Part shown: positions 8,306 to 64,000 of the stretch, in pieces
Layout: each line of letters begins with the position of its first letter
Position numbering within the stretch: position 1 is the stretch's first letter
NCBI GenBank assembly: GCA_017457155.1
Contig: JAFTHZ010000016.1
Span: 1 to 64,000 of the forward strand
DNA: 64,000 nucleotides
Reading direction: 5' to 3'
Source: Ruminococcus sp.
Lineage (GTDB): Bacteria > Bacillota > Clostridia > Oscillospirales > Acutalibacteraceae
Made by a program: the position numbers and the translations under genes
The notes under the pieces: generated by a model
What the model saw: only the letters and a program-made list of their open reading frames with translations
Database searches by the model: none
Told to the model about the DNA's origin: nothing

Positions 8306-8341
8306 AATACTACCCTTTATAATTTACAATAATACATAAGT

Positions 8342-8375
8342 CAGATTCTGTAATCCTTAGGGATTACAGAATCTG
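8342..8375 (-). other. Perfect 15-bp inverted repeat over the Clp gene stop codon
   Basis: CAGATTCTGTAATCC (8342-8356) and GGATTACAGAATCTG (8361-8375) are exact complements around TTAG. The stop codon of the Clp ATPase (8364-8366) lies inside one arm. There is no clear T run on the minus side, so it is a strong hairpin but not a textbook terminator. Confidence 0.8.
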
Positions 8376-10712: not shown

Positions 10713-10734
10713 AGTTTTTTCTCCTTCCTGAGCT

Positions 10735-11343
10735 TTAATCAGCAGATTTGCCGAGCTGCTCAGCCTTAGCATTTTTCATTGTTTTTCTGAATATCATTGA
10801 GTATCTGATCAGCGAGTAAACCATGATCACTGCTGTTAATGACAATAATATGAGAAATAAAGGACGGACATTCTCAAATCCCAGTATAAGGTCAAAGACC
10901 ACAATACCCGCCACTGTAAAATAGAAACACACAGTACCAAGCTTTCCGTACCACTCAGAGCCGCAGGGGGTGATCTTCTTCCTGAGCATTACCGAAGCTC
11001 CGACAAGCATCAAAAGATCCTTGAGAGCAAGGATGATGATAATAGGGATAAACACATGCTCTACAATTGCAAGACAAACACCCACCGCAAACAAAGTGAG
11101 CTTGTCCGCCACAGGATCAAGCATCTTACCAAGCTCCGTCTGTTGGTTGAGTTTACGGGCAAGGAATCCGTCCACACAATCGCTCAATCCCGAGGCAATA
11201 ATACACATAGCCGCACCGATATATTTCTCTCTGAGAAAAAGTACAACAAAGGGAAGAATCAAAATGATACGGATGTAGCTAAGGATGTTTGGAATTGTAA
11301 AGATGTATTTGTAGTCAATCTTTTTTTCTTTATTCCACTCCAT
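10735..11343 (-). CDS. pgsA: CDP-diacylglycerol-glycerol-3-phosphate 3-phosphatidyltransferase
   Basis: This is a 202-residue membrane enzyme with about five hydrophobic segments. It transfers phosphatidyl from CDP-diacylglycerol to glycerol-3-phosphate, the committed step to phosphatidylglycerol. The CDP-alcohol phosphatidyltransferase motif is visible near residues 55-80: DCVDGFLAR, then GKMLDPVADK, giving the conserved Asp set. One conserved Gly is Cys in the first part (DCVDG rather than DG). A good ribosome site (AGGAGAAGG) precedes the ATG. It sits in a minus-strand run between cvpA and the Clp ATPase, with short gaps that suggest one transcript. Other CDP-alcohol transferases are possible, but length and motif favour PgsA. 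Confidence 0.85.
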   Translation of the reverse strand: MEWNKEKKIDYKYIFTIPNILSYIRIILILPFVVLFLREKYIGAAMCIIASGLSDCVDGFLARKLNQQTELGKMLDPVADKLTLFAVGVCLAIVEHVFIPIIIILALKDLLMLVGASVMLRKKITPCGSEWYGKLGTVCFYFTVAGIVVFDLILGFENVRPLFLILLSLTAVIMVYSLIRYSMIFRKTMKNAKAEQLGKSAD

Positions 11344-11371
11344 TAATACCTTCTCCTAACGTTGATTCCCG

Positions 11372-12109
11372 TCAACCGAGAATCATGTTTTCTGAATTAT
11401 ATACAAACTGCTGGAACCAGGAGAGAATTACGTCTCCGTGGAGCACAGACAGCAGCTCTGAACCTTTCATATATCCTTCTACTACTGATGCTGTAGAGGT
11501 TGGTAGCATTGGAAGTATAAGGCTTACAAGCGCCGCAGACACCGCTACAACAATTAGTCCCTGAAGCAAGCCGACAGCCACACCAAGGATGCTGTCAACC
11601 GTACGAATAAGCGGAAGGGTGAAAACCCGGGACAGAAGTTTTGCCACCCAAAGCAGTACTGCAAGTAAAATTACAAAAAGTACAATACTCAGCATGGATG
11701 CAACCGCTCCTGTTACGGAGGGTCTGAGTGCATCTGTGATGCTGATTGCGGCTTTATCAGACGCAGCAGCAACAGCATCAGAGCAGTAGCTCTCAAGCGA
11801 AGTATCCGTAACTCCAAAGTAGCTCAGCGCACTAACGGCGTATGTAGGCATAGCCTCAATAATGGATGCAGACAGTCCCGCTGTCTCGTTAGCATATGCC
11901 TGAGTCAGAGACTGAGAAATCCTGTCGGCGATAGCCTGTCTGAGGAAAGCATCAAAGATAACCTCAGCCAGAATCTCGGACAGTATAAATGCAGCACAGG
12001 CGGCAATAAGCACCGCTGAGAACGAAAGAATGGTTTTAGCCGCTCCCCGATATATTCCCAGTGCCGCAAACAGCAGTATGACAACTGCCAGAATAATATC
12101 AACTATCAT
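11372..12109 (-). CDS. CvpA family membrane protein
   Basis: This is a 245-residue protein. The start is placed at 12109 (MIVDIILAV) because the alternative GTG nine bases earlier has no ribosome site. Its N-terminal hydrophobic run of the MIVDIILAVVILLFA type, the glycine-bearing GIYRGAAKTI loop and about four transmembrane segments (near 1-20, 25-45, 105-130 and 155-185) match the CvpA family. In E. coli CvpA is linked to colicin V export and envelope permeability; in Firmicutes homologues the role is unclear. It is spaced 12 bases after the DUF5711 gene and 28 bases before pgsA, so it is probably one operon. Confidence 0.8.
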   Translation of the reverse strand: MIVDIILAVVILLFAALGIYRGAAKTILSFSAVLIAACAAFILSEILAEVIFDAFLRQAIADRISQSLTQAYANETAGLSASIIEAMPTYAVSALSYFGVTDTSLESYCSDAVAAASDKAAISITDALRPSVTGAVASMLSIVLFVILLAVLLWVAKLLSRVFTLPLIRTVDSILGVAVGLLQGLIVVAVSAALVSLILPMLPTSTASVVEGYMKGSELLSVLHGDVILSWFQQFVYNSENMILG

Positions 12110-12121
12110 ATATATCACCCG

Positions 12122-13348
12122 TTAGAATGTGCAGACAACAACCTTATCCAGACCGAGGATATATACACTGTTGGCGCTGTACATACGAATCTGCTCACAC
12201 TGACTCAAAAGCTTGTGGGTTACTTCAAACTCACCTGCATCATTATATCTGTAAAGAGAAACTCCGTCAGTGACAGTGATTCTGTCCTTGATGGTTGAAA
12301 CAGAGATAATCTCATAATCGGTTTCTATGTTTCTTTGCACCGCACCCTCTGTGTCAACAAGACGGATAGTACAGTTTCTTCCGTCACCGCTTCTGGACAG
12401 AGAGAGGGTGAGTCTGCCTATATCTGCATTGAAGTCATAGGCTGTAAGCTCCATCTGGTCGTAGCTTGTTGCGACAATCTCTGAGAAATCCCTACCCTTG
12501 CATATAAAAGCAGAAGCAGAACCCACCGCACATACGGACTGAGAGCTGATGAAATCGCAATCAAAGATAACCTCATCCTCGATTATGTGCTTTGCCAAAG
12601 GTTCTTCTTTGGTAAAATCAAGAACATAAACTGCGCTGACACTCTTGCCCTGCTGAGTAGAGACTCCGCACAGCACAGCACCGCTTCCGTCAGGACTTAA
12701 AGCCATTGATGTAATGTAATACTCAGAGAAGTTATAGGCATACATAAGACTATGCTCTGCTGAATAAATCTCAAAGCGAGCATTGTATCCGCTGCTCTCG
12801 GTAACAAATCCGTAGCACAGCTGTGAAGTTACATCTGCAAGATATATATTCTCCTGAGTATTGGATGACTTGAGAGTCGATTCTTCAGACACCAGAGTGT
12901 ATCCTGTGCTGCCCATATCGTATATGATGCCCGCTGTCTTGTCGCTACGGAACATAGGCTGAGCATAGGCTATCTGGACAGAATGAAGTTTCTCTCCATC
13001 CTCGTTCATATACACAAAATCCGTGTCAGATACGTATCCGACACCCTCGGAATATGTGCGGAAGTTACCGGGCTCCACATCCAGTCCGGATATGGCATAG
13101 GAAACCTCCTTGGGCTGGGTCTGAATACCCACACAAGAAGCGATGGAGCCTCTGCAGAAATACACCACAACGCAAAGCACCAGAAGAACTATGATAGAAA
13201 CTCCAATGATAACGCGCTTTCTGTCAAGACGAAGTTCGTGAGCTTCAGGTTTCTTCTCGTATTCCTCAAGAGGGAGCTGTTCATAGCTGAGCACATCTCT
13301 GGAGTTCTTTTTCTTATTTTTTGCTTGAAAGTGACCTGGCTTTTTCAT
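12122..13348 (-). CDS. DUF5711-type single-pass membrane protein
   Basis: This is a 408-residue protein with a basic cytoplasmic head, one transmembrane segment (about 43-66, ending VVYFCRG), and an outer region of about 330 residues made of repeated short beta strands, consistent with a beta-propeller. The start is supported by AAAGGAGACGG. The layout and operon position beside cvpA match a conserved but uncharacterised Clostridia family that I recall as DUF5711. No enzymatic motif is visible. It may act in the envelope with CvpA, as the two are 12 bases apart on one transcript; that is inference only. Confidence 0.7.
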   Translation of the reverse strand: MKKPGHFQAKNKKKNSRDVLSYEQLPLEEYEKKPEAHELRLDRKRVIIGVSIIVLLVLCVVVYFCRGSIASCVGIQTQPKEVSYAISGLDVEPGNFRTYSEGVGYVSDTDFVYMNEDGEKLHSVQIAYAQPMFRSDKTAGIIYDMGSTGYTLVSEESTLKSSNTQENIYLADVTSQLCYGFVTESSGYNARFEIYSAEHSLMYAYNFSEYYITSMALSPDGSGAVLCGVSTQQGKSVSAVYVLDFTKEEPLAKHIIEDEVIFDCDFISSQSVCAVGSASAFICKGRDFSEIVATSYDQMELTAYDFNADIGRLTLSLSRSGDGRNCTIRLVDTEGAVQRNIETDYEIISVSTIKDRITVTDGVSLYRYNDAGEFEVTHKLLSQCEQIRMYSANSVYILGLDKVVVCTF

Positions 13349-13367
13349 AAGCCGTCTCCTTTCTCTT

Positions 13368-14150
13368 TTATGTTAAATCATAGAAAACCTTGTCAAGATA
13401 AAGTCCGCAGGCAGGAGCAGTGGGTCCTGCAGCAGACCTGTCAAGGGCACAAAGGACACGGGGAATGGAATCCTCTGAAAGTCCTCCTTCGTTAATATAC
13501 AGAAGGGTGCCTACCATAATACGGACCATATTATACAGGAACCCATCCGCTGTAACAGAGAAGTACACCATATCGCCCTCCCGCCACACCGAAAAGTCAG
13601 AGACAGTGCGGACAAAGTCCCCTATCTCCCTCTTATCAAGTGTGCAAAAAGAGGTGAAATCGTGGGCTCCGATGTATGCTTTGGATGCACGGCTGAGCAT
13701 TTCAACGTCGATGGGTCTTCGATAATGGAGAGCTCTTCCCTGAAGGAAGGGGTCTCTCACCTGAGAATTGAGGACCTTGTAGACGTATCTCTTGCCCAGT
13801 GCGCTGTATCGTGCGTGAAAATCCGCAGGCACCTCTCTGACGGAGGTGACAACCACATTAAGAGGCAGGTGGCTGTTAAGGGCGGCCACAAACCTCTCAC
13901 AAGGAATAGGATGGGTTATCCTCATACTGATACAGAACATATTTGCATGGACCCCTGAGTCCGTACGGCTGCACCCCTTGATATCGGGGCAACTGCCCAG
14001 AATCTTCGCTACGGCTTCCTGAAAAACCTGCTGAACAGTCAGGGCATTATGCTGAATCTGCCAGCCGTGAAAAGCGCTTCCGTCAAAACGAAGGGTAATG
14101 AGCAGATTACGCTCACAGACAGGAGTGGGATTTACAGGAGTATGTTGCAT
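13368..14150 (-). CDS. truA: tRNA pseudouridine(38-40) synthase TruA
   Basis: This 260-residue enzyme converts uridines 38-40 of the tRNA anticodon arm to pseudouridine. The conserved opening LITLRFDGSAFHGWQIQ and the catalytic segment GCSRTDSGVHA, with the nucleophile Asp, are present, as is the C-terminal DGFLYNMVRIMVG motif. Length is normal for the family. The ribosome site AGGGGTGAT precedes the ATG, and the start lies inside the ecfT 3' end (19-base overlap). The ecfA-ecfA-ecfT-truA order is standard in Firmicutes. Confidence 0.95.
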   Translation of the reverse strand: MQHTPVNPTPVCERNLLITLRFDGSAFHGWQIQHNALTVQQVFQEAVAKILGSCPDIKGCSRTDSGVHANMFCISMRITHPIPCERFVAALNSHLPLNVVVTSVREVPADFHARYSALGKRYVYKVLNSQVRDPFLQGRALHYRRPIDVEMLSRASKAYIGAHDFTSFCTLDKREIGDFVRTVSDFSVWREGDMVYFSVTADGFLYNMVRIMVGTLLYINEGGLSEDSIPRVLCALDRSAAGPTAPACGLYLDKVFYDLT

Positions 14151-14932
14151 AGTATCACCCCTGCCATTACAACTGCAAATACTGCGAAAGCCACCACATC
14201 ACGTTTTCCCATGTGGAGCTGCTTCATTCTTGTTCTTCCGCTGCCGCCCTGGTAGCACCTGCACTCCATAGCCATAGCAAGCTCGTAGGCTCTGCGGAAG
14301 GCAGACACAAACAGAGGTATGAGAATGGGAATCAACGCCTTGACACGAGCGATGAGATTTCCGCTCTCCATATCCGCACCACGAGCCTTCTGAGCAGACA
14401 TAATTTTGTCTGTCTCCTCAAGCAGAGTAGGCACAAAACGCAGAGCAATGGTCATCATCATTGCTATCTCGTGGGTCTTTATCCTGAAAATCCCCAGCGG
14501 CTTCATCAGCCTCTCCAGAGCATCTGTCAGGTCTGTGGGAGAGGTTGTGAAGGTAAGACATGAGCTGAGCATAACCAGAAAGATTATACGAACAGCAACG
14601 AAAATAGCATTCCTGATACCATCTGCTGTTATCCTGAATATCCACCACTGGACAAGCACCTCACCCGTTCCGTAGAAAAGGTTCAGGAATGAGGTGATGA
14701 GAATGACGAAGATGATAGCTTTCATACTCTTCAGATACAGCTTCAAGGGAACCTTGCTCAACAGTACAGAGGCTATGACAAGTCCCACTACAACTGTGAG
14801 AGAGAAGAAATTGAATGCACAGAATATGAGCACAATGGCTCCCACAAGAAGAAGTATCTTAGCTCTGGGATCAAGTCGGTGAAGTACTCCTCCGGAGGGG
14901 AAATACTGACCGAGAGTAATATCACTCAGCAT
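14132..14932 (-). CDS. ecfT: ECF transporter transmembrane subunit EcfT
   Basis: This 266-residue integral membrane protein is the energising membrane subunit of group II ECF vitamin transporters. It couples the two EcfA ATPases to exchangeable S-components. The start [15 protein letters not shown] at 14932 follows GGAGGGAAAGAT. Five to six transmembrane segments are visible. The coupling motifs appear as AQKARGADMESG and a second Ala-Arg-Gly-like motif in the C-terminal half. It overlaps ecfA2 by 7 bases and truA by 19. RibU and FolT, encoded at 29.6-31 kb, are likely clients in this genome. Confidence 0.93.
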   Translation of the reverse strand: MLSDITLGQYFPSGGVLHRLDPRAKILLLVGAIVLIFCAFNFFSLTVVVGLVIASVLLSKVPLKLYLKSMKAIIFVILITSFLNLFYGTGEVLVQWWIFRITADGIRNAIFVAVRIIFLVMLSSCLTFTTSPTDLTDALERLMKPLGIFRIKTHEIAMMMTIALRFVPTLLEETDKIMSAQKARGADMESGNLIARVKALIPILIPLFVSAFRRAYELAMAMECRCYQGGSGRTRMKQLHMGKRDVVAFAVFAVVMAGVILCNILL

Positions 14933-15795
14933 ATCTTTCCCTCCTTTCGGAGAATACCGCATATCTGTTCAAACGCTTCATCAACGGTGAGAATTCCCTC
15001 GGGAAGGGCAACTCCCATATCACGAAGCATAGTTGTGATTTTTGTAATCTGAGGCACCCGCAGTCCCATCTGCTCAAGCTCGTCACTTCTGGCAAATACT
15101 GCCTTGGGAGTATCCAGCATAACACACTCTCCCTTGTACATAACAAGGACTCTGTCTGCAATGCGGGCAATATCCTCCATGCTGTGAGACACAAGCAAAA
15201 CAGTATTTCCGCGGGATTTGTGGTAGGCATCGATCTGCTCCAGAAGCACATCCCTGCCCATAGGATCAAGACCTGCAGTTGGCTCGTCCAGAATAAGGAT
15301 CTCGGGATCCATAGCAATAACACCTGCTATGGCTGCACGACGCTTCTCTCCACCTGAAAGGTCGAAGGGAGAGCGATCAAGAAGCTCCTCACGAAGTCCC
15401 GCAAACTTTGCGGCCTTGCGGATACGTTTATCCACAGCCTCTGCGGGAAGTCCCATGTTACGGGGACCAAAGGAGATATCCTTGCGGACAGTCTCCTCAA
15501 ACAGCTGGTTCTCGGGATACTGGAACACAAGACCAACCTTGAAGCGAACCTGTCTCAGGTTCTTTTTATTCTCAAATATATCGGCACCATCCAGATAAAC
15601 TGTGCCGTCGGTGGGTGTGATAAGTCCGTTGAGCATCTGCATAAGGGTGGATTTACCTGAGCCTGTGTGGCCGATAACTCCGATTACCTCGCCCTTGTTT
15701 ATCTCGATGTTCACGTTCTTTACCGCTTGTTTCTCAAAGGGAGTGTTGATGCCATAGGTAAAGCTCAGTCCCTCTGTCCTCAGAAGTACACTCAT
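14926..15795 (-). CDS. ecfA2: ECF transporter ATPase EcfA2
   Basis: This 289-residue ABC ATPase starts at 15795 ([15 protein letters not shown]) after GGAGGTG. Walker [11 protein letters not shown]-loop [13 protein letters not shown], signature [13 protein letters not shown], Walker [13 protein letters not shown] and the switch His (LVSHSM) are all intact. It powers vitamin uptake with EcfA1 and EcfT. It overlaps ecfA1 by 4 bases and ecfT by 7, so the subunits are translationally coupled. Confidence 0.95.
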
Positions 15796-36120: not shown

Positions 36121-36753
36121 ATGAGAATAATAAAGAAAATCATCCCCCTATTTATTACTATTTCGCTCCTGATATCCTGCATTTTTTCAGCTGATGCGAA
36201 AACCACCGAGGAAGAATTATTCGATGACTTTGTTGTGTATTGTGAAGAAAAGCTGAACATTAAGTACGACCCTGAAAACCCCTTGGAATCTTCCATAATA
36301 ATATACAGCTACTACGAGACTCCTGATGCAACATTCTTCTGCGGCAACGGCTCATCACCGATCCTGCTCATGGAATACTCCGAAAATATCGGGAACTGGT
36401 ACTTTGTCAGCCCCGTGATATTCTCTCCGGGCGGGTTAGGATTGTTTGTCCGGAGTAAGGGTGAGATTTATACCCTGAGGGAAGCCTACAACTCAGGAGT
36501 TATCACAGACCTGAGCCCTACACTACACCTGACAGACATAATTAATTATGAAATATATCCTAACGGAGACGCAAATGGTGACGAGACAGTAAACATCAAG
36601 GATGCCACAACCATACAGAAATACCTTGTAGGAATTGATACAACACTTGCTGAAGTCCAAGATGTCCGCATCCTGATGGATACAAACACAGACGGAACAG
36701 TCAACATAAAAGATGCAACAACTATACAGAAGAAGCTCACAAACCTTGAATAA
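36121..36753 (+). CDS. Small secreted dockerin protein
   Basis: This 210-residue protein has a signal peptide (about 1-26, ending FSADAK), a short unclassified globular part (about 28-135) and a C-terminal dockerin. Both calcium loops are canonical: DANGDETVNIKD and DTNTDGTVNIKD, each followed by ATTIQK. The middle domain has no enzyme or known binding motif that I can recognise. AAGGAG precedes the ATG. It is probably a non-catalytic amylosome/cellulosome component; its globular part could be a new module. It is monocistronic, with a terminator 11 bases after the stop. Confidence 0.82.
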   Translation: MRIIKKIIPLFITISLLISCIFSADAKTTEEELFDDFVVYCEEKLNIKYDPENPLESSIIIYSYYETPDATFFCGNGSSPILLMEYSENIGNWYFVSPVIFSPGGLGLFVRSKGEIYTLREAYNSGVITDLSPTLHLTDIINYEIYPNGDANGDETVNIKDATTIQKYLVGIDTTLAEVQDVRILMDTNTDGTVNIKDATTIQKKLTNLE

Positions 36754-40612: not shown

Positions 40613-41353
40613 TCAATCACAGAGAAACTCCTCTGCTGCTGCATAGACCTTCTGCGCAATCTCGTCAATGGACAGAGGATTATCTCCGTCACTGCAGGGG
40701 ATAACCTTCCAACCCTGACGCTGTGCGGCATAAAGTGCACTCTCGCGACAAGCACGCAGAAACTCAACATTCTTCTCGTGCAGGTCCTTCTTGGACTCGT
40801 CGCTGTTGTATCTGCCTGACATAAGTCTCTGGGAGACATCTGTGGGCATATCAAGGTATATTACTCCGTCAGGTCTTGGAAGACCAAGACGGTCAAACTC
40901 GTATTCATCCAGCCATCCAAGAAAGCTGTCCCACTCGTCACGGGGAAGCTTGGAGGTCATATAGACCATATTGGATGTGGTGTATCTCCACTCGTCACAG
41001 GGAAGCTTGGAGGTCATATAGACCATATTGGATGTGGTGTATCTGTCCAAAACAAAAAGGGTGCCCTTTTCGTAGTCTTCCCGCCAGCTTTTCAGGTAGC
41101 TGGCTACTCTGTCAACCGCATAGAAAGATGCGGCAGCGTAGGCATTGACACAGGAGGGATCCTTGCCGAACTCTCCTCCAAGATACATTCTCACAGGAGC
41201 AGAACCATCGCTGTCATAATCAGGGAAAGACAACTTTTTTACTGAATACTTCTCGGATAATCTGTCCATGAGGATTCTTGACTGGGTGGCCTTGCCTGAT
41301 CCGTCAAGTCCTTCAATAACGATAATACGTCCCTTTTGATTGTTATTTTCCAT
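40613..41353 (-). CDS. tmk: Thymidylate kinase with internal 19-residue tandem duplication
   Basis: This 246-residue protein has the P-loop GLDGSGKATQS, DRY substrate motif (FVLDRYTTSN) and the LID region (SGRYNSDESKKD). It phosphorylates dTMP to dTDP and lies next to ThyX. Straight after the DRY motif the segment RYTTSNMVYMTSKLPCDEW is followed by a second copy with Arg for Cys. This is a 57-bp tandem repeat in frame, coded by 40931-40987 and 40988-41044. It lengthens the protein by 19 residues next to the substrate site. The rest of the protein looks normal. Activity may be altered, or the copy may be polymorphic. Confidence 0.85.
   Translation of the reverse strand: MENNNQKGRIIVIEGLDGSGKATQSRILMDRLSEKYSVKKLSFPDYDSDGSAPVRMYLGGEFGKDPSCVNAYAAASFYAVDRVASYLKSWREDYEKGTLFVLDRYTTSNMVYMTSKLPCDEWRYTTSNMVYMTSKLPRDEWDSFLGWLDEYEFDRLGLPRPDGVIYLDMPTDVSQRLMSGRYNSDESKKDLHEKNVEFLRACRESALYAAQRQGWKVIPCSDGDNPLSIDEIAQKVYAAAEEFLCD
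40931..41044 (-). repeat. 57-bp tandem duplication inside tmk
   Basis: Two 57-base copies (40931-40987 and 40988-41044) differ at one base (G 40942 versus A 40999). The junction is in frame. Confidence 0.97.
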
Positions 41354-42149
41354 AGCCGTACAGTTCCCTTACTTCTTTGATTTTTCCGCAGGTCATGCTG
41401 CCCTCAGGACAAGCTCCGCGCATACATGAGGGGCCGCTCTTTGAGAACAGATGAGGAGCCTCTGCCTTACAGAGCAGGAGCATCTGACGGGCAACCTCAC
41501 GAATTTCCCACTGAGCACGGTTGCAACAGCGGTGAGCAAAGAAGTTCTCCAGACTGCGAACATTGAAGGTACAGACGATCTTGGTGGTGCAGGCATTGGG
41601 CAGAATATAGCGTGCATCCTCGTTGGCCTTCTTGATGAAAGCGGAGCACTTGGATTTGTTCTCTGCCTTGAACTGCTCTATGATCTGTGCGTCGGTTCCG
41701 CTGTACTCAACTGAAGAATACTCCCTAATGTACTTTACTGCAAGGGCATCCCTAATCTCGGAATAAGCCTGCTTCTGAAGCTCAATCACCTTGCTGTAAA
41801 CCTGAGTACAATGAGGATCATCCGCAATCTCGGGAGGGGTGACAAACTCAAAGTTGTTACCATCCACATAGCGCTGGGACTGCTGGCTGTATGAGGCGAT
41901 ACGATGACGCACAAGCTGATGTGAGCAGGCACGTGAGATACCTTCTATACCAAAGGTGAATGATGCGTGCTCTGTGGGACTGGCATGACCCAGGTCTGCA
42001 AGCATCTTCACAAAAGAAGCAGTAGACTCCTCTGTGAGACCCTCGCGGATACTGCTGATATCTGAGGGAGAGTAGCACAGCTTTGCTGCGGCGGCTACAA
42101 TCTCCTCGGGGCTGGGTGTATGTGCCAGTAGTGTCACCTTGATTGCCAT
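41343..42149 (-). CDS. thyX: Flavin-dependent thymidylate synthase
   Basis: The start is taken as ATG 42149 (MAIKVTLLAHTP), with AGAGGGGATAATT as ribosome site. The 268-residue enzyme has the ThyX motif RHRIASYSQQSQRY near residue 88, and a C-terminal catalytic-type block FAHRCCNRAQWEIREV. ThyX makes dTMP using methylene-THF and FAD without an active-site Cys nucleophile. It overlaps tmk by 11 bases, so dTMP synthesis and phosphorylation are co-expressed. Confidence 0.95.
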   Translation of the reverse strand: MAIKVTLLAHTPSPEEIVAAAAKLCYSPSDISSIREGLTEESTASFVKMLADLGHASPTEHASFTFGIEGISRACSHQLVRHRIASYSQQSQRYVDGNNFEFVTPPEIADDPHCTQVYSKVIELQKQAYSEIRDALAVKYIREYSSVEYSGTDAQIIEQFKAENKSKCSAFIKKANEDARYILPNACTTKIVCTFNVRSLENFFAHRCCNRAQWEIREVARQMLLLCKAEAPHLFSKSGPSCMRGACPEGSMTCGKIKEVRELYGYGK

Positions 42150-42253: not shown

Positions 42254-42297
42254 AAACAAAGGCGGTGCTCTCCCCAAAAAATGAGGAAAACACCGCC
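42254..42297 (-). terminator. Terminator of the phage-derived lysis cassette
   Basis: GGCGGTG (42261-42267) pairs with CACCGCC (42291-42297), with extension through CTCTCCCC against TGAGGAAAA, followed on the minus strand by TTTGTTTTC. It separates the holin gene from thyX. Confidence 0.78.
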
Positions 42298-42311: not shown

Positions 42312-42584
42312 TTATTTATCTTTCAGATAAGCCTGCAGTCGCTGTGAGGAAATTTCTCCTGACTTGATCTTGTCAAGAATGATCTGCGCCATCCTCGCCG
42401 CAGGAGTAAAGTTGTTGTTCTTCCACATAGTCCACACAGAAATCACAACTGTCACCATAACAGAGACAAACTGATATATATCGCTGTCAGATACTGCCAG
42501 CGGATTAATACCAGATACTGTGAGGATGGTGTTTATCATCGAAACAATAAAAAAGACTAATCTTACTATAAGACCTTTGTCCAT
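42312..42584 (-). CDS. SPP1-type phage holin
   Basis: This 90-residue protein has two hydrophobic segments (about 6-28 and 37-56) separated by a short polar turn (NPLAVSDSD), and a charged C-terminus with AARMAQIILDKIKSGEIS. That layout fits the small SPP1-family holins that open the membrane for endolysins. It sits 9 bases downstream of the GH25 endolysin gene and is the last gene of the cassette. Confidence 0.82.
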   Translation of the reverse strand: MDKGLIVRLVFFIVSMINTILTVSGINPLAVSDSDIYQFVSVMVTVVISVWTMWKNNNFTPAARMAQIILDKIKSGEISSQRLQAYLKDK

Positions 42585-42593
42585 AAATACTCC

Positions 42594-43577
42594 TTACTCC
42601 AACCCTGCCAGCTGTTTCTGCAGGGCGGTCACGTCCTTAATATCCACATCCCCGTCTGCGTTTATATCTCCAACGGATCTGATATCCTCAAGCAGCTGAC
42701 TGACCTTATCCTCATAACTCTTATCCCTTGCGATTCTCCTGAGATTCACCTGATGCTCCAGATCGCTGATAAACTTCAGAGTCACGGAGATATCCTCGCT
42801 GTCATATCCCAGATATGCTTTTGCCTCTTTGATGGCAGCTGTGGTCAGTCTGCCAACCTTGTTATCAATAGGTTTCACAAAGGTTTTGACTATGCCCTGA
42901 GCATAAGCCTGACGGAGAAGAGCTTGTACCCCTGCTGTCTCAAGTGACTCATTTTCGCTGAGAGGAAGCTCCCCGTTATATATCCTGTTCAGGTCAACGT
43001 TACCGCTGATGCCGCTCACAGACCCCTCGGAGCTGTATTGCCATACATCGCACTCAAAGGCAGGCTGTGTGGCATAATGAGCAAGCCAGATATAATACTT
43101 GGAGCGAAGTTCGTTATAATCCAGATGGTTTCTGAACCAGTCCGGATTAGAGTACACACCTGCTCTAAATCCTCCTCTGATTATTTCGTCACAGAAGGTT
43201 TTTGCCATCTGTGTGAGGACAGATTTCCCCAGAGATTTCTGGGAGTTCTCCTCCATATCAAAGAAAACAGGCAGCTCAAGGCTCTTTCCCTCAAGCACCT
43301 TAAGACAAGCCGTTGCCTCACGCTTGGCCGTAGCAACACCGTCCGCATAGGAATACCAGTAAACACCTATCTTTACTCCTGCGGTTTTTGCGCTGTCGTA
43401 ATTTCGTTCAAACTGCTCGTCCATCTGCTCTGCATATCTGCCGTACCCTGCTCGAAGAATTGCATGGTCGTAACCGTCAGCTCTGACCTTTTTCCAGTCA
43501 ACTTTACCCTGCCAGGTAGACACATCAATACATTTAATATTCGCTATTTTTCTCACCTCCCATAAAATACTATTCAT
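42594..43577 (-). CDS. GH25 phage-type lysozyme ending in a dockerin repeat
   Basis: This 327-residue protein has a GH25 (Cellosyl-like) muramidase core: IDVSTWQGKVDW near 17, AILRAGYG, KIGVYWYSYA, the catalytic VFFDMEE near 105, and AGVYSNPDWF. No signal peptide is present, as expected for a holin-released endolysin. After about residue 210 comes a peptidoglycan-binding-like region (VGRLTTAAIKEAKAYLG). The last 27 residues are one dockerin repeat (DINADGDVDIKD followed by VTALQKQL). A single repeat is half a normal dockerin. ATG 43577 has a modest AAGAAGTGA site; a stronger GGGAGGTGAG sits downstream but has no good start codon. It lies between the XhlA-like gene and the holin gene. Confidence 0.85.
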   Translation of the reverse strand: MNSILWEVRKIANIKCIDVSTWQGKVDWKKVRADGYDHAILRAGYGRYAEQMDEQFERNYDSAKTAGVKIGVYWYSYADGVATAKREATACLKVLEGKSLELPVFFDMEENSQKSLGKSVLTQMAKTFCDEIIRGGFRAGVYSNPDWFRNHLDYNELRSKYYIWLAHYATQPAFECDVWQYSSEGSVSGISGNVDLNRIYNGELPLSENESLETAGVQALLRQAYAQGIVKTFVKPIDNKVGRLTTAAIKEAKAYLGYDSEDISVTLKFISDLEHQVNLRRIARDKSYEDKVSQLLEDIRSVGDINADGDVDIKDVTALQKQLAGLE

Positions 43578-43598
43578 AAATTCACTTCTTGGTGAATA

Positions 43599-43883
43599 TT
43601 ATCCTAACCCCATACGGATGAGTACAAAGCTCACAACCGCCGCAATCACTGTCAGCAGGATCTTGTCAATCACCGCGTCAAAGCGTTTGGCGGGCTTTCC
43701 AAGCATTGACTTGATGTCTGATTTCATCTCATCAATGTTCATCTCCATGCTGTTCTGCTTCTCTGCAAGCACTGCCACGATCTTGATGAGCTCCTCAATA
43801 TGATCAGCTCTGTGCTCAAGCTTCTCAATACGTTTGGAATTGGATTTGCTTCTGTCAATAGCCTCTTGAAGTCTGACTTCCAT
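43599..43883 (-). CDS. XhlA-like phage accessory lysis protein
   Basis: This 94-residue protein starts at ATG 43883 with GGAGGTGTGT upstream. A coiled-coil front (RSKSNSKRIEKLEHRADH, then EEL and EKQNSMEMNIDEMKSD) precedes one transmembrane segment near 73-92. This is the hemolysin XhlA layout, known from phage lysis modules where it assists the holin. It is 21 bases upstream of the GH25 gene. Confidence 0.78.
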   Translation of the reverse strand: MEVRLQEAIDRSKSNSKRIEKLEHRADHIEELIKIVAVLAEKQNSMEMNIDEMKSDIKSMLGKPAKRFDAVIDKILLTVIAAVVSFVLIRMGLG

Positions 43884-43898
43884 ACACACCTCCGACTA

Positions 43899-44072
43899 TC
43901 AGATAATCTCTGAATCATCAGGATAGACATAATCAGGATATCCCTCGCGCAGGTTCTCCGACTCTGCGAGACGTCGGGTGTACTCCTCCTCTGTGAGCAG
44001 GACAAATGCTGGGTCAGAGATCTCTGCATCAGAAGAGAAGAGATGAGTATTCCGCTCATAATAGTATTTCAT
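43899..44072 (-). CDS. 57-residue small acidic protein of the phage cassette
   Basis: This short ORF starts MKYYYERNTHLF at 44072 and ends PDDSEII at 43899. It is rich in Glu, Asp and Tyr (TEEEYTRRLAES). The start overlaps the previous stop by one base in TGATG, and the gap to the XhlA gene is 15 bases, so translation is coupled. Tail-fibre clusters often carry such small proteins, but I do not recognise this one. Confidence 0.68.
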   Translation of the reverse strand: MKYYYERNTHLFSSDAEISDPAFVLLTEEEYTRRLAESENLREGYPDYVYPDDSEII

Positions 44073-44527
44073 CAGACTTCCTCCCCTGCCAAGTAGAATG
44101 TATAGGTCATATCCTCAAGGAATATAAACGGAGCAGGAAAGCTCACACTGTAGCCATCATCCGTCCATGAATCAATGGTTGTATTGGCTTTTATGACACC
44201 GCTCTCAAACACCAATTCTCCGTTGATATATCCCAACACCCCTGTCTTTTCTTTTTCTCGGGAGTAACAGGCAACTGTGTTTTCAACCGCCACGGCTCTC
44301 TCAACGCTGATATACACAAGGGTCGGAACAAACGAAAGTCCCGATACCGAGAAAGTGCTTGTGGACTCTCCGGGAGTGAAGGTACCTGTTACACAATACT
44401 TGCATTTTGAGAGTGCGTTTGCGTAGGTATCAATGGTGTCGCTATCAGAAATATCAGCACCTCGTCTGTTGATAGCCTCCCTTAGCTCTGATTTCCCCTT
44501 TGAGATTCTGAGAAGTTCTGTTTTCAT
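44072..44527 (-). CDS. Phage tail-associated protein
   Basis: This 151-residue protein has an N-terminal helical part of about 45 residues with KSELREAINRRGADIS and DTIDTYANAL, typical of Siphoviridae tail-fibre-like proteins in Firmicutes prophages. A C-terminal beta-rich half (GTFTPGESTSTFSVSGLSF) follows. No enzymatic motif is visible. It lies 14 bases after the tail-fibre/baseplate gene. Confidence 0.68.
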   Translation of the reverse strand: MKTELLRISKGKSELREAINRRGADISDSDTIDTYANALSKCKYCVTGTFTPGESTSTFSVSGLSFVPTLVYISVERAVAVENTVACYSREKEKTGVLGYINGELVFESGVIKANTTIDSWTDDGYSVSFPAPFIFLEDMTYTFYLAGEEV

Positions 44528-44541
44528 ATACCCATCCCTCC

Positions 44542-45642
44542 TCAGTATTCAGACAAGAAGTTATCAAGTCCCGACAGGGTCTCGCCTATCTCCTGCAAAG
44601 CGCCCTCCACCGTATCGGACAGAAAGTAGTCTCCCTCATCGTCGATGGTACGGATACCCTGAAGAAGCTCTATGCTGAGATAGTCAGCGGTCACAGGAAT
44701 CTTTGTGATTCCTCCCAGGCCCTTCATATACTGATACCACTCTAAAGTGTCTGTGCTGAACATATTGAGCACCATACCAGTGTTGTCGGTAAAGCCTATG
44801 TAAGAAACTCCTGCTCCAACCAGCTCTGCATCCTCAAAATTATCCGTGAACTCAAGGCTGTACATAGTGTCGCCTTTGCCCAGAAGAGAACCAAGAAAAT
44901 CGTAGGAATATACGCTGTACATAGACACCTTCTCAGGGTATGCTCTGTCAAGCTTTTCGGGACTTATTGCCCCTGGTGTTATTTTCTCGGCGGTTACTGA
45001 CTCGTTGTGAAGCTTATCGGTTGTGACAGATGCTTCTGCCAGCTTTTCTGTTGTGATAGAAGAGTCTGCCAGTTTCTCTGTTGTGACAGCTCCGTCTGCA
45101 ATCTGGGATGTCTCTGACCTTCCGACTGAAGGATGACCGCTGTCTACATACTGACCCTTGCTGCTGTCAAAAATAAACCAGTTGCCATTATCGCCGATAA
45201 CAGGCATAAGCAAAGAAGCCTGACTCACGGTTTCGCTCAGAGAATTGAGCTTCTCCTCATATTCAAGGAACTCTGAATTCTCCTTGAGAAACGTGTCAGA
45301 CAGCTCGGTGCTGTCTCCTACCACAAAAGTATCGGTGGTGGTATGATATACCACTCCTTCGTCAGAGAACACCTTGATCTGCGCCCGGACAAGTCCGCAC
45401 TTGAAGATATGACCCAGCTCTACCTGCCAGGTGAGCACAACACCCTTGTCTGTCACGCGTGAAGGGAGAACAAAGTAATTAACTGTACCGTCATCAAAGG
45501 TAAGGTAGATGCGGTAGATACGACTTTCCTCCGAAACTCCGTCCAGAAGAAATTCGATGGTCCTGTAGAGGTTATCGCCTGCAAAACCGATAAAACGCTC
45601 TTTTTCGGGGATGGTAAGTTTTCCATCCAGAATTGTAATCAT
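44542..45642 (-). CDS. Phage baseplate upper protein/tail-fibre-like protein
   Basis: This 366-residue protein starts at ATG 45642 (MITILDGKLTIPEKERF), with TGGAGGTG upstream. The first 110 residues resemble a BppU-like baseplate head (FAGDNLYRTIEF, IYLTFDDGTVNYF). Near 180-230 there are five 10-residue repeats of the type SITTEKLAEA/SVTTDKLHNE, common in phage tail fibres, then a globular tip. No tail tape measure or tail tube gene follows, so this is a fragment or a cassette. Receptor binding is the usual role of such proteins. Confidence 0.75.
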   Translation of the reverse strand: MITILDGKLTIPEKERFIGFAGDNLYRTIEFLLDGVSEESRIYRIYLTFDDGTVNYFVLPSRVTDKGVVLTWQVELGHIFKCGLVRAQIKVFSDEGVVYHTTTDTFVVGDSTELSDTFLKENSEFLEYEEKLNSLSETVSQASLLMPVIGDNGNWFIFDSSKGQYVDSGHPSVGRSETSQIADGAVTTEKLADSSITTEKLAEASVTTDKLHNESVTAEKITPGAISPEKLDRAYPEKVSMYSVYSYDFLGSLLGKGDTMYSLEFTDNFEDAELVGAGVSYIGFTDNTGMVLNMFSTDTLEWYQYMKGLGGITKIPVTADYLSIELLQGIRTIDDEGDYFLSDTVEGALQEIGETLSGLDNFLSEY

Positions 45643-45667
45643 ATGATATACACCTCCACCCACAACA

Positions 45668-45707
45668 CAAAAAAAAGAGAAATTGCACAAAAGAATGCAA
45701 TTTCTCT
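45668..45707 (-). terminator. Terminator of uvrA
   Basis: AGAGAAATTGCA (45676-45687) and TGCAATTTCTCT (45696-45707) are perfect 12-bp arms followed by T residues on the minus strand. Only 26 bases remain before the tail-fibre start codon. Confidence 0.92.
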
Positions 45708-45723
45708 GAAAAAGATGATATTT

Positions 45724-48549
45724 TTATTTTTTCAGCAGTTTTCTGAGGAACTGTCCTGTGTAGGACTCAGCACAATCTGCCACCTTCTCGGGGGTACCTT
45801 GTACCAGGATTGTACCTCCCCCGTCTCCGCCCTCGGGACCAAGGTCAATGATATGGTCAGCAGTCTTGATAAGGTCAAGGTTATGCTCGATAACCACCAC
45901 GCTGTTCCCCTTGTCCACAAGCTGCTGGAGCACATCGATGAGGCGGTGTACGTCAGCCGCATGGAGACCTGTTGTGGGCTCGTCCAGAATATAGATGGTC
46001 TTGCCTGTAGAGCGACGTGAAAGCTCGGTTGCAAGCTTCACGCGCTGAGCTTCACCACCTGACAGAGTGGTGGCAGGCTGGCCAATCTTGATGTATCCCA
46101 GACCAACATCATAGAGGGTTTTGAGTCTGCGGTAAATCTTAGGAATATTGCTGAAGAACTCCATTCCCTCTTCTACTGTCATCTCCAGAACATCATAGAT
46201 GGACTTGCCCTTATATTTGACCTCAAGGGTCTCTCGATTATATCGTCTGCCTTTGCACACATCGCAGGGTACATACACATCAGGCAAAAAGTGCATCTCA
46301 ATCTTTATGATTCCGCCACCCTCGCAGGCCTCGCATCGTCCTCCCTTGATATTGAAGGAGAATCGCCCGGATGTAAATCCGCGGAGTTTTGCCTCCTGAG
46401 TCTTAGCGAAAAGCTCACGTATATCCGTAAACATTCCTGTATATGTGGCGGGATTTGAGCGGGGTGTCCTGCCGATGGGGCTCTGGTCTATATCGATAAC
46501 CTTGTCAAGATGCTCAAGACCTTTGATTTCCTTGTGCTTGCCTGCACGCATCTTGGCACCCATCAGATCGTGAGCCAGCTTCTTATACAGTATCTCGTTT
46601 ATGAGTGAGGACTTGCCCGAGCCGGACACACCTGTCACACAAACAAGCTGACCCAGAGGTATATTCACATTTATATTCTTCAGGTTGTTCTGAGATGCGC
46701 CGAGAATTTTCAGGGAGTTTCCTGAGCCCTTTCGTCTCTTCTCGGGAACAGGCACAGCCAGCTCTCCGCTGAGGTACTTTCCTGTGAAGGAATCCTTACA
46801 TTTAATGATATCCTTTACGGTACCGCTGCACACAACCTGTCCTCCGTGCACACCTGCACCGGGACCGATATCAACAATATGATCCGCAGACAGCATTGTA
46901 TCTGTGTCGTGCTCTACAACAATAACAGTATTGCCAAGATCACGCAGACGTTTGAGAGTACCGAGGAGCTTCTCATTATCACGCTGATGGAGACCGATAC
47001 TGGGCTCGTCCAAAATATAGACAACCCCCATAAGTGAACTTCCGATCTGAGTTGCCAGACGGATACGCTGACTCTCGCCGCCTGAGAGGGTACCTGCAGA
47101 GCGGGACAGGGTCAGATATCCTAGTCCCACGCTATCCAGAAATCCCAGTCTCTCGGTAATTTCCTTGACGATTGCTCCGCCAATGAGCATCTGACGCTCG
47201 GACAGAGTATTCTCATTAATAAACTTCAGAGCCTGCGACACGGACATATCACAGAACTGTGCAATATTCAGTCCACCTACGGTTACTGCAAGGGACATCT
47301 TTGAAAGTCTCCTGCCGCCGCATTCATCACAGGGAATGGCAGACATAAAGGACTCAATCTCTTCCTTTATCCAGTTGCTGGAGGTCTGATGGAAACGACG
47401 ATCAAGGTTATTGATTATACCCTCAAAGGGAGCATAATACTCCCCTCCTGCATAGAGTCCCGTACGCACAAGGCGTATTTTCTCCCCCTTTGTACCATAG
47501 AGGAGAATATCAACGATCTCATCAGGCAGGTCCTTGATGGGAGTATCGAGGGAGAAACCATAATGCTCGGAAAGTCCCTTATAATACATTGAAGCGATGG
47601 TGTTGCCCTCCATGGCCCAGCCACCAGCCTTGATGCCGCCCTGAGCAACAGACTTGTTTCTGTCAGGGATAACTCTGTCCGGGTCAATTCTCATGAATAC
47701 CCCCAGACCCGTACACTTGGGACAGGCACCCTGAGGTGCGTTGAAAGAAAACATACGGGGCGTCAGCTCGTCAATGCTGCTGCCGTGCTCGGGACAAGCG
47801 TAGCTCTGGGAGAAGAGAATATCATCTTCACCCTCCACAGCCACAAGTACAAGTCCCCCTGCAAGTTTGGAGGCGGTCTCTACGCTGTCTGACAGACGGG
47901 AGCGTATGCTGTCCTTGATTATAAGCCTGTCGACTACGATTTCTATACTGTGTTTTTTATTCTTTTCGAGAACTATCTCTTCTGACAAATCATAGATTAT
48001 GCCGTCAACTCTGGCTCTGACAAAGCCTCCCTTGCGAGCAGAGTCCAGCTCTTTCTGGTGCTCGCCCTTGCGTCCTCTGACAACAGGAGCCATCACCTGA
48101 ATTCTGCTGCCCTCGGACAGCTTCATCACCCGATCAACGATCTGGTCCACTGACTGCTGTTTGATCTCTCTGCCGCATATAGGACAATGAGGAGTACCCA
48201 GCCTTGCATACAAAAGTCTCAGGTAGTCGTATATCTCGGTAACAGTTCCCACCGTGGAACGGGGATTCTTTGAGGTGGTTTTCTGGTCAATGGATATGGC
48301 AGGAGAAAGCCCGTCTATACCATCCACATCCGGCTTGTCCATCTGACCCAGAAACATTCTGGCATAGGACGAGAGGGACTCTACGTATCTCCTCTGGCCC
48401 TCGGCATAGATTGTGTCAAAGGCAAGAGAGGACTTGCCCGAGCCTGAGAGTCCTGTGATAACAACAAGCTTATCTCTGGGGATATCCACATCTATGTTCT
48501 TCAGGTTGTGCTCTCTGGCACCCCTGACGGAAATATATTTTTCGGACAT
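45724..48549 (-). CDS. uvrA: Excinuclease ABC subunit A
   Basis: This 941-residue ATPase starts at ATG 48549 ([10 protein letters not shown]), with GAAGGTGACAG as ribosome site. It has two ABC modules ([11 protein letters not shown] and [22 protein letters not shown] and [12 protein letters not shown]) and zinc-binding Cys pairs ([27 protein letters not shown]). It recognises bulky DNA damage and loads UvrB. No uvrB is nearby. It sits after ftsH with a spacer holding an inverted repeat. Confidence 0.97.
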
Positions 48550-48593
48550 TTCTGTCACCTTCTTTACACAGGGAATTATATCATTCTAAAGAT

Positions 48594-62292: not shown

Positions 62293-64000
62293 TTATGCGT
62301 ATGTTCCGATGTCGGAATCAGGAAGCATCAGAGCAACCCACTTCTGAATTGCGGTAGCATCCTTAACGTTAACGTTGCCGCTGTTGTCAACATCAGCTGC
62401 TGCCTCGTTGTAAGAAGCAACCTCCATCAGAGCTACAACCTTCTGGATTGTAGTAGCATCCTTAACGTTAACTGTATTGTTACCATCAACGTCACCAACC
62501 ATTACGCGATCAGGATCAGTAACGGGAGGCTTGCCCTGTGTCTCTGTAGGAGTTGTATCTGCGGGAGTTGAGGGAGTTGTGGGAGTTGTGGGCTTGTGAT
62601 CATAGAAGGGGCAATCCCAGTAGCCTACTGTCCACTTACCATCTACACCTGAAGTATCCTTCATGTACATACCGATGCTGTCTGTAACTGTCAGGTCGAT
62701 TGTCTGGTTAGAACCGCCGCCGGTACCGTTGTTGATGATGTAGCAGTCATACTCCTCAGGAACATAAGCAACGTACTGCTTCTCGCCGTAGTCGTTGTAA
62801 CGTGCAAACTTCATCTCTCTGCCGGGCCATGCAAACTCGCACTCCTCTGTGCCCTGCTTCCAGCAGTAGTAATAAACTGTGCTCCAGTTAGAGCTATTGG
62901 ATGCGGAGTAAACAACAGTGTTGTAACCCTCAACTCTGGGATAGAGCTCATCATAAATCTCGATCTCCCAGGGATCATCGGGAAGCTCAGGGAATGTGGG
63001 AGCAACATCGTCCTCTGCATAGTAGATACATGCGATACCTGTTGCGCCGATGGAACCTGTGAGCATCTGGTCAGCAACTACGAACTCGTTGCCTGTGATA
63101 GCATCGATGTACTTACCATCTGCCAGAGTGTAGGTCTTCATGTTTACAGTCTTGACTGTGCCGGACAGGTTAACAAGAGTTGCACCCAGACCGCCACGCT
63201 CGATGATTGCAACCTTATCAATGGTCTTGCAGTACTCGGAAGCGTTGCCGAAGTAGTTGTCGAACTGGTTAACAGCTGCAACCTCGGGTGTTGCCCAAGA
63301 AGTTACGTTTGCCTCACCAAGAACGATGTCTGCACAGATTTTCTCAATAGCTGCACGGTTTGCACCTGTTGCATCGTTGGGACGTGCAAAGTAAACGCCT
63401 GTGATCTCCTGGCGAGCTGCTGTGAGAGCCCAGATCTTGTTTCTCTGCTGGATTGTCAGAGAGGATGTGCCGCCGTCGATGTATGTATCGTGGGACTCGT
63501 TCCACTGGATAACGTTCTCTTTTGTGAAGTTAACAGTTGTGGGATCACAACCCTCTTTCTCAGACTTGTAGAAAGGAGTAGCGTTGCCGCCGTTGCCGCT
63601 CTTCTGAACAGCGTCCTTGATTGACCAGTAAGAAGAAGAGTCAGTAACGTCCATGAGCTCTGTATACTCGTGGAAGGGACGACCGTCGCCGCACTTGTTG
63701 AGAATCTCGCCGTATGCGTAGTTCTCCATGTCGGGATAGTTAGCTCTGAGCTTGAGGAGAGTGTTATCCCAGAAGTCAGATGCAAAGTATGTGTCGTGCT
63801 TTGTCTCGATGTGCTTTGCAGCGTCAAAACGGAAGCCGTCTGCGCCGGCCTCAACCAGCTCTACAAAGTAATCATAGATAGTATCCTGAACCAGCTTAGT
63901 CTCAGTTGCAAGGTCAGGAAGACCGGATGTACAATGCTGAGTCAGGTCCTCTTCGATGTCGTAATCGCTGTAGCCATCCCAGTAGTTCTCTTTGTATGTC
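62293..64000 (-). CDS. GH13 alpha-amylase with starch-binding module and dockerin (N-terminus off window)
   Basis: The frame stays open to the window edge and 568 codons are seen. The GH13 catalytic blocks are read as GFRFDAAKH (nucleophile Asp), YGEIL (acid/base Glu) and ESHDTY (third Asp), in the usual order. A C-terminal beta domain follows. Next comes a CBM26-like module (VYSASNSSNWSTVYYYCW, then WPGREM and YIINNGTGG), a Thr/Pro linker (TPTTPSTPADTTPTE), and a dockerin with two intact calcium loops (DVDGNNTVNVKD and DVDNSGNVNVKD). It hydrolyses starch outside the cell and docks on a scaffoldin, as in the R. bromii amylosome. The signal peptide would lie upstream of the window. Confidence 0.93.
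   Translation of the reverse strand, partial: TYKENYWDGYSDYDIEEDLTQHCTSGLPDLATETKLVQDTIYDYFVELVEAGADGFRFDAAKHIETKHDTYFASDFWDNTLLKLRANYPDMENYAYGEILNKCGDGRPFHEYTELMDVTDSSSYWSIKDAVQKSGNGGNATPFYKSEKEGCDPTTVNFTKENVIQWNESHDTYIDGGTSSLTIQQRNKIWALTAARQEITGVYFARPNDATGANRAAIEKICADIVLGEANVTSWATPEVAAVNQFDNYFGNASEYCKTIDKVAIIERGGLGATLVNLSGTVKTVNMKTYTLADGKYIDAITGNEFVVADQMLTGSIGATGIACIYYAEDDVAPTFPELPDDPWEIEIYDELYPRVEGYNTVVYSASNSSNWSTVYYYCWKQGTEECEFAWPGREMKFARYNDYGEKQYVAYVPEEYDCYIINNGTGGGSNQTIDLTVTDSIGMYMKDTSGVDGKWTVGYWDCPFYDHKPTTPTTPSTPADTTPTETQGKPPVTDPDRVMVGDVDGNNTVNVKDATTIQKVVALMEVASYNEAAADVDNSGNVNVKDATAIQKWVALMLPDSDIGTYA

What the first reader, a model, noticed from the sequence alone, without database searches (positions are those of the whole stretch)
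42312..45642. Compact phage-derived lysis cassette whose endolysin carries a dockerin repeat
A tail-fibre/baseplate-like gene, a tail-associated gene, a 57-residue protein, an XhlA-like protein, a GH25 lysozyme and an SPP1-type holin form one closely spaced run. There is no integrase, terminase, portal, capsid or tape-measure gene, and both sides are housekeeping genes (uvrA, thyX). The endolysin ends in a dockerin repeat (DINADGDVDIKD, then VTALQKQL). I know of no phage lysin with this feature. A domesticated cassette could release large enzyme complexes through the wall, remodel the wall at scaffold attachment sites, or kill neighbours while tethered to the cell by cohesin-dockerin contact. 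Holin/endolysin-driven secretion is known (for example TcdE in C. difficile and the Serratia chitinase system), which makes the idea plausible.
Basis: partly seen in the sequence, partly recalled or inferred. Interest (0 to 1): 0.85.

Follow-up and report, generated by a model that had tools for sequence, protein, structure and literature searches.

The report
Scattered hairpin-linked gene transfer agent
Six phage-type genes between two housekeeping genes of a gut Ruminococcus-type bacterium look like the detached fibre-and-lysis part of a conserved, scattered set of phage-particle genes that share one hairpin leader, which likely makes a gene transfer agent (a domesticated phage that would carry host DNA between cells).

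Summary
In detail: fibre, two small tail-type genes, XhlA-like protein, GH25 lysin and SPP1-type holin lie between uvrA and thyX, without other phage genes. The enzyme-release or scaffold-tether reading is not supported: the lysin ends in one dockerin repeat, not two, in all 120 listed homologues, and a 59%-identical lysin sits in a contig filed as viral. Elsewhere in the same genome (G000:C9) lies an 11-kb packaging, head and baseplate cluster without lysis genes. Its gene order recurs in 20 fetched loci; its baseplate J gene is found in 150 of 161 congeneric genomes, once in 139; its trees follow uvrA, and it is under purifying selection. Both loci start with the same hairpin plus T-run. Across the genus that hairpin precedes mainly the fibre gene and the head cluster, and also lysis cassettes, replication-initiator-like, VapE-like and MuF-toxin/barstar genes. 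Best reading: a dispersed, co-regulated, domesticated particle, likely a gene transfer agent like the published two-operon Faecalibacterium FpGTA. The same study saw 4.6-kb packaging in Ruminococcus callidus; the sections I read name no genes for it. Particles, DNA packaging and transfer are untested here.

The parts
45676..45707 (-). Shared leader hairpin (12-bp stem, T-run), directly upstream of the fibre gene; covariance model R1 match 45666-45709
   Evidence: Terminator-like hit; R1 E=2.0e-8 (this site is in the model's training set); covariation; same element upstream of the head cluster
44542..45642 (-). Tail-fibre gene: BppU-like N-terminal attachment domain, conserved; variable C-terminal part
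   Evidence: PHROG tail-fibre matches; AlphaFold/Foldseek match to phage baseplate proteins (NF5, 80alpha, 4v96); N-terminal domain in 98 of 161 congeners
44072..44527 (-). 151-aa tail-associated protein
   Evidence: phrog_24330 tail fibre, E=0.0013; relatives in L075 and L076
43899..44072 (-). 57-aa protein, XkdX-like by position only (recalled)
   Evidence: No family match; weak relative in L076
43599..43889 (-). XhlA-like lysis-associated protein
   Evidence: phrog_937 'hemolysin' E=3.5e-11
42594..43577 (-). GH25 endolysin with a single dockerin repeat at the C-terminus
   Evidence: PF01183; phrog_291; 750 homologues, 120 listed; alignment
42597..42671 (-). Single (half) dockerin repeat of the lysin
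42312..42584 (-). SPP1-type holin
   Evidence: PF04688, phrog_263
42261..42297 (-). Terminator-like hairpin closing the cassette
   Evidence: 16-bp stem, 9 G-C pairs, T-rich tail

Best explanation
The cassette is likely the fibre-and-lysis module of a vertically inherited, scattered phage-particle gene set whose head, packaging and baseplate genes lie at G000:C9:4056-15197, and it would work as the release and recipient-binding arm of a gene transfer agent. Shown: both loci, recurring order of the head cluster, tree congruence with uvrA, purifying selection, and one shared hairpin leader found mainly upstream of these and other phage-type genes. Inferred: under an unknown signal the hairpin-led operons would be switched on together. 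TerS/TerL would fill small capsids with host DNA; the BppU-type domain would dock the variable fibre on the baseplate; holin and lysin would burst the producer; particles would bind kin through the fibre. The hairpin is read as a conditional terminator, or less likely a DNA operator. The half-dockerin is read as a calcium-binding cap of the lysin, not a scaffold tether.
For: Head cluster: TerS, TerL, portal, protease-like, decoration, capsid, LysM hub, hub, spike-like, gp25-like, baseplate J, gp48-like; same order in 20 of 20 fetched loci apart from single genes cut off, absent or not called; no lysis or integrase match among its genes. Baseplate J in 150 of 161 congeners, one copy in 139. Trees against uvrA: TerL r=0.75, capsid 0.71, portal 0.82, J 0.73, BppU-N 0.61, thyX control 0.82, each 0 of 2000 permutations; lysin only 0.31, 19 of 2000. 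Median dN/dS: TerL 0.07, capsid 0.09, BppU-N 0.14. Hairpin core: 8 or more of 10 bases upstream of 39 of 39 fibre genes (34 exact) and in 32 of 34 TerS regions (21 exact); shuffled windows reach 8 in 2.7% and 8.2%, exact in none. 16 of these fibre genes have moved to other loci, 12 of them with the exact core. Control: of 962 ORFs of 150 aa or more, 48 carry core plus T-run upstream, 43 of them fibre or TerS. Published: two-operon FpGTA particles, and 4.6-kb packaging in R. callidus (PMC12946183; abstract, sections 9, 10, 26 and passages).
Against: No particle, packaged DNA or transfer was observed in this organism. Homology with FpGTA was not tested. BppU-N was found in only 98 of 161 genomes by a single-sequence query; R1 in 140 of 161, so 21 genomes had no site at 1e-4. 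The TerS leader is weak or missing in some: G043 and G008 gave no R1 site there and G153 only E=0.015. In six genomes the uvrA-thyX site is empty and the fibre lies elsewhere, in several without a lysin that I recognised beside it. TerL of G058 and the capsid of G049 read with internal stops. The leader also precedes replication-initiator-like and VapE-like genes, which classical gene transfer agents lack (recalled). No sheath match, and no tape-measure-sized ORF in the cluster: how baseplate joins head is unclear. G050, G051 and G062 have the cassette but no baseplate J match (the three are 68-90% complete).
Confidence: 0.76

Rival explanations
1. The cassette is a decaying remnant of a prophage that once sat at uvrA-thyX.
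For: All genes with a match are phage-type and the lysin family also occurs in a contig filed as viral.
Against: Same place in many species, usually single copy, open frames, purifying selection, anchor domain co-evolving with the host, and head genes conserved elsewhere.
Confidence: 0.05
2. One reading: a stand-alone domesticated holin-lysin cassette releases or tethers scaffolded enzymes through the half-dockerin.
For: The genome has cohesins and many dockerins; lysis-type secretion systems exist (recalled).
Against: One repeat only in 120 of 120 listed homologues; a lysin in a contig filed as viral has it too; relatives have CHAP or amidase lysins without a dockerin match; shared leader with the head cluster.
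Confidence: 0.05
3. The particle is a killer rather than a courier: a PBSX-like defective phage that kills relatives, perhaps also by delivering a MuF toxin, with barstar giving immunity to kin.
For: The leader also precedes a MuF/RNase gene followed by a barstar gene in G016 and a MuF-barstar remnant in G000. Fibres are variable. The FpGTA authors leave this open for their particle.
Against: Conserved TerS, TerL, portal and capsid argue for DNA packaging; sheath match in only 5 of 161 genomes.
Confidence: 0.25
4. On the leader alone: it is a DNA operator, an 18-bp palindrome bound by an activator ahead of an A-T-rich element about 19 bases downstream, and not an RNA attenuator.
For: Fixed core; a TATARG-like element at a near-fixed distance in 60 of 88 leaders against a mean of 19 in shuffles; the pattern was written after seeing the sequences.
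Against: Wobble pairs exceed mismatches in the core (22 against 8), all 88 have a T-run, the stem covaries beyond the core, and in fibre leaders little room is left for a start site before the ribosome-binding site.
Confidence: 0.35

Closest known systems
FpGTA of Faecalibacterium (PMC12946183; abstract, sections 9, 10, 26 read)
   Same: Two separate operons in a related group of gut Bacillota: one with terminase, portal and capsid, one with fibre, holin and endolysin
   Different: Here the baseplate J and gp48-like genes sit in the head cluster; more loci share the leader hairpin, which the sections read do not mention; sequence homology was not tested
RcGTA of Rhodobacter (recalled)
   Same: Split loci with lysis and fibre genes apart from the main cluster, vertical inheritance
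   Different: Different host phylum; the leader-bearing set here includes replication-type genes
PBSX of Bacillus subtilis (recalled)
   Same: Similar order of fibre, XkdX-type, XhlA, lysin and holin genes; LysM and baseplate hub genes
   Different: PBSX is one contiguous element with sheath and tape measure; here scattered and without a sheath match
MuF polymorphic toxins (PMC5576092, abstract and outline seen)
   Same: MuF-type N-terminus with a toxic C-terminal domain (L255, PF00545), barstar gene behind it
   Different: There described as encoded only in temperate phages and prophages; here under the particle leader, with no other phage gene seen in the stretch

Membership tests
Gene transfer agent | Host-encoded packaging, head and tail/baseplate genes | tested here: met
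Gene transfer agent | No integrase or self-mobilising genes at the loci | tested here: met
   Genes of the G000 cassette and head cluster scanned against PHROGs and most against Pfam; flanks only read by eye; no dedicated integrase search was run
Gene transfer agent | Vertical inheritance with the host and purifying selection | tested here: met
   not met for the lysin, whose tree shares no more splits with uvrA than shuffles do
Gene transfer agent | Packages host DNA non-specifically, in fragments too small for its own genes | not testable with these tools
   Only published packaging in R. callidus, 4.6 kb
Gene transfer agent | Delivers DNA to recipients | not testable with these tools
   No experiment possible
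FpGTA | Sequence homology of capsid and portal with FpGTA I | not tested
   No named Faecalibacterium sequence was fetched; the capsid gene has one match each in 43 of 295 genomes of the order, six families
Contractile tailocin | Tail sheath gene | tested here: not met
   PF04984 in 5 of 161 genomes, none in G000
Siphophage baseplate element | Dit-type distal tail protein | tested here: not met
   PF05709 in 3 of 161 genomes, none in G000
Type I dockerin | Two calcium-binding repeats over the family cut-off | tested here: not met
   One repeat, 15.3 of 22.9 bits; one repeat in the last 90 residues of 120 of 120 listed homologues (119 by pattern, P0023 by eye)
Type I dockerin | Binds a cohesin | not testable with these tools
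   Cohesin matches exist in G000

The most novel reading that the evidence does not exclude
Ruminococcus-type gut bacteria carry a gene transfer agent broken into several unlinked operons (head, fibre plus lysis, replication starters, MuF toxin with barstar immunity). They act as one machine because each operon begins with the same hairpin, a terminator that one antitermination factor would open. The toxin-immunity pair would restrict gene delivery to kin.
Probability: 0.3. Interest if true: 0.93.

Novelty: new variant of a known kind. Interest (0 to 1): 0.86.

Why it matters
It offers candidate genes for the gene-transfer-agent-like DNA packaging reported for Ruminococcus callidus. It gives a sequence signature (hairpin model R1) that finds the scattered operons of such systems in unannotated genomes. 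It also shows how phage parts can be dispersed over a chromosome yet look like one regulon. Gene flow among gut Ruminococcus-type bacteria becomes directly testable.

Tried and rejected
Isolated-remnant and scaffold-release readings were rejected on the genus survey. Siphophage-tail and contractile-tailocin readings were tested with Dit and sheath families and rejected. An SOS link through uvrA was considered: no GAACNNNNGTTC site in the window; one in L116 inside the TerL gene, a number that 36 of 200 shuffles reach; not pursued. Rfam gave two weak eukaryotic-family matches over the leader, both far below their gathering scores. Literature: dockerin plus endolysin gave 13 papers, none judged relevant from the listing. 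Searches for gene transfer agent with Ruminococcus, Firmicutes, R. callidus, Faecalibacterium or regulon terms gave one relevant paper; the library holds open-licence papers only. Of the 42 unassigned hairpin sites, 20 were fetched and read and a few more were already read; the rest were not.
Full report
1. What is in the window. The six genes are at the stated coordinates on the minus strand, between uvrA (45724-48558) and thyX (41343-42146). Families: SPP1 holin, GH25 with a single dockerin repeat, XhlA-like, tail-fibre-like. The 57-aa gene has no family match. The unit is bounded by a hairpin with a T-run upstream (45676-45707) and a terminator-like hairpin downstream (42261-42297). The fibre's first 110 residues fold confidently (pLDDT about 90, 71 in residues 21-30; the whole model is poor, mean 63). 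The model matches phage NF5 and 80alpha baseplate proteins and 4v96 (TP901-1 baseplate, recalled) in the PDB, and several BppU-named viral proteins.

2. The dockerin. The repeat scores 15.3 bits against a cut-off of 22.9 and covers positions 2-23 of a 57-position model. Of 750 lysin homologues 120 were listed; all 120 have one calcium-loop motif in the last 90 residues and none has two (119 by pattern, P0023 by eye; alignment of 20). A 59%-identical lysin, aligned through residue 327, lies in a 48.5-kb contig filed as viral (L069). There it follows a tail-fibre-type gene and a 2130-aa ORF of a phage family, and no leader hairpin is found. So the half-dockerin is a stable trait of this lysin family. 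The genome has 54 dockerin and 5 cohesin matches, so contact with a scaffold is not excluded, only unsupported.

3. Conservation of the place. In the 161 congeneric genomes searched, the fibre's N-terminal 165 residues are found in 98, one copy in 97 and two in G109. Of 39 genomes with a fetched fibre gene, 23 have it directly behind uvrA and 16 elsewhere, next to genes that I read as housekeeping genes. In six of these (G065, G005, G018, G170, G175, G129) uvrA and thyX are only about 140-640 bases apart. Behind the conserved anchor the rest varies. Of 10 fibres scanned, four matched GDSL hydrolase, M14 peptidase, DUF6273 or BspA-type repeats above cut-off. Companions include LamG-like, CBM5/12, exo-endo-phosphatase-like and tyrosine-phosphatase genes; lysins are GH25, amidase or CHAP types; there are two holin families. 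In G083 a CHAP lysin and small genes that I read as holin- and XhlA-like stay at uvrA-thyX while the fibre is elsewhere.

4. The rest of the particle. Baseplate J (PF04865) is present in 150 of 161 congeners, one copy in 139. In the window's genome it lies at G000:C9 inside an 11-kb cluster (4056-15197): TerS (PF03592), TerL (PF03237), portal (phrog_30703, 1e-114), a protease-like gene, decoration, capsid (PF25209), three connector- or tube-type ORFs, LysM hub, hub, spike-like, gp25-like, J, gp48-like and a 156-aa ORF (several matches lie below the Pfam cut-offs). The order is the same in 20 of 20 fetched loci, apart from single genes cut at contig ends, not called by my ORF picker, or absent (the 156-aa ORF in L131 and L132). 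No lysis gene is among them. Sheath (PF04984) occurs in 5 of 161 genomes and Dit (PF05709) in 3. Four of the five sheath genomes (G058, G065, G072, G134) have extra J copies, so those are probably separate elements.

5. Vertical inheritance. Against uvrA, distance correlations are 0.71-0.82 for TerL, capsid, portal, protease-like and J, and 0.61 for the fibre anchor (0 of 2000 permutations each; 14-18 shared splits of 31-35, at most 3 in shuffles). The thyX control gives 0.82. The lysin gives 0.31 (19 of 2000) and shares 2 of 11 splits, no more than shuffles. Median dN/dS among pairs with dS under 2: TerL 0.072 (13 pairs), capsid 0.093 (14), portal 0.105 (12), J 0.164 (8), BppU-N 0.141 (11), lysin 0.077 (4), uvrA 0.031 (11), thyX 0.045 (8). 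The pairs were chosen by me. Frames without internal stop: TerL 36 of 38 genomes, capsid 37 of 38, portal 38 of 38, J 42 of 42.

6. One leader for the parts. The hairpin core TTGCA-N8-TGCAA stands ahead of the fibre gene in 39 of 39 genomes at 8 or more of 10 bases, exact in 34, including the 16 moved genes (12 exact). It stands ahead of TerS in 32 of 34 regions, exact in 21; for the other 4 of 38 genomes with TerL the stretch held no upstream sequence. Shuffled windows reach 8 in 2.7% (fibre) and 8.2% (TerS) and the exact core in none. I dropped three of the 32 (G043, G008, G153) as doubtful; later R1 found G153 only at E=0.015 and no TerS site in G043 or G008. The two misses, G049 and G054, had under 60 bases of upstream sequence; R1 found the G054 site in the whole genome. 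On 48 leaders the 12-bp stem is paired in 94.3% of cells (0 of 500 shuffles), with 52 cells changed on both sides (14.6 in shuffles); pairs with a change on both sides are 6 against 4.2, reached by 23 of 500 shuffles. Over 88 leaders the 7 core pairs are 586 Watson-Crick, 22 wobble, 8 mismatched; all 88 have four or more T's behind. Among 962 ORFs of 150 aa or more in the fetched loci, 48 have core plus T-run upstream: 28 fibre, 15 TerS, 5 other; I read the 5 as genes divergent from a leader-bearing gene.

7. The regulon. Model R1 finds the element in 140 of 161 genomes at E of 1e-4 or better. Of 148 sites copied from the printed part of that list, 47 precede the fibre gene, 39 precede TerS (judged from the distance to J), 20 lie within 1.5 kb behind uvrA, 42 are other. 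In the 60 genomes not used for training: 28, 22, 17 and 35. Of 20 'other' sites read, 8 precede the TerS-TerL cluster, 4 lysis cassettes, 1 a divergent fibre gene, 4 replication-initiator-like or DUF6291 genes, 2 VapE-like genes, 1 is unclear. G000 has four places: the cassette, TerS, a MuF-barstar remnant (C1) and a DnaD-like helicase-loader gene (C10; weak, E=0.005 on the gene's strand). In G016 the third site precedes a MuF-type protein with a barnase-type RNase domain, followed by a barstar gene.

8. Comparison. PMC12946183 (abstract, sections 9, 10 and 26 and passages read) reports FpGTA: operon I with terminase, portal and capsid, operon II with baseplate, fibre, holin and endolysin, about 40-nm particles and about 9-kb DNA. 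It also reports GTA-like packaging of 4.6-kb fragments in Ruminococcus callidus; no operon is given for it in the sections read. The present loci have a similar division of labour. Homology was not tested. The capsid gene occurs in 43 of 295 genomes of the order, in six families, one match each. In IMG/VR, 31 of 33 contigs with it are under 19 kb and 11 are 10-12 kb, as expected for host loci cut out as 'proviruses'.

9. Limits. Many of the genomes are drafts and all are unnamed; the organism's name is inferred from names of homologues and of matching contigs. Nothing here shows expression, particles, packaging or transfer. RNA attenuator versus DNA operator is unresolved: a TATARG-like element sits about 19 bases behind the palindrome in many leaders (60 of 88; shuffles 19; pattern chosen after looking).

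Noticed in passing
window 40613-41353 (tmk): The thymidylate kinase reads with a tandem repeat (RYTTSNMVYMTSKLP.DEW twice), about 18 residues longer than in the relatives seen (246 against 217-229 aa).
   Followed up: no
G000:C1:42681-42724 / L246:6176-6664: Leader hairpin before an ORF that joins a short MuF-like piece to a barstar domain without a toxin part; G016 has MuF plus RNase followed by a separate barstar gene.
   Followed up: partly
L274, L281, L248, L250, L262, L252, L253: Leader hairpins in other species precede VapE-like, HTH_36/replication-initiator-like and DUF6291 genes, which suggests a replication arm of the regulon.
   Followed up: partly
L203 (IMG/VR contig, 80 kb): A distant version of the head cluster (capsid 50% identical) lies beside genes that look like glycolysis genes and has an extra 343-aa ORF that looks like a tail sheath; possibly an ancestral contractile form.
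   Followed up: no
L119, L122-L124, L126-L129, L134, L135: In many genomes the head cluster sits beside ORFs that look like prs, pth and mfd, while the fibre-lysis cassette sits beside uvrA: two repair-gene neighbourhoods.
   Followed up: no
window 5212-5367, 36565-36738, 62341-62496: Dockerin matches over the family cut-off in other frames of the same window.
   Followed up: no
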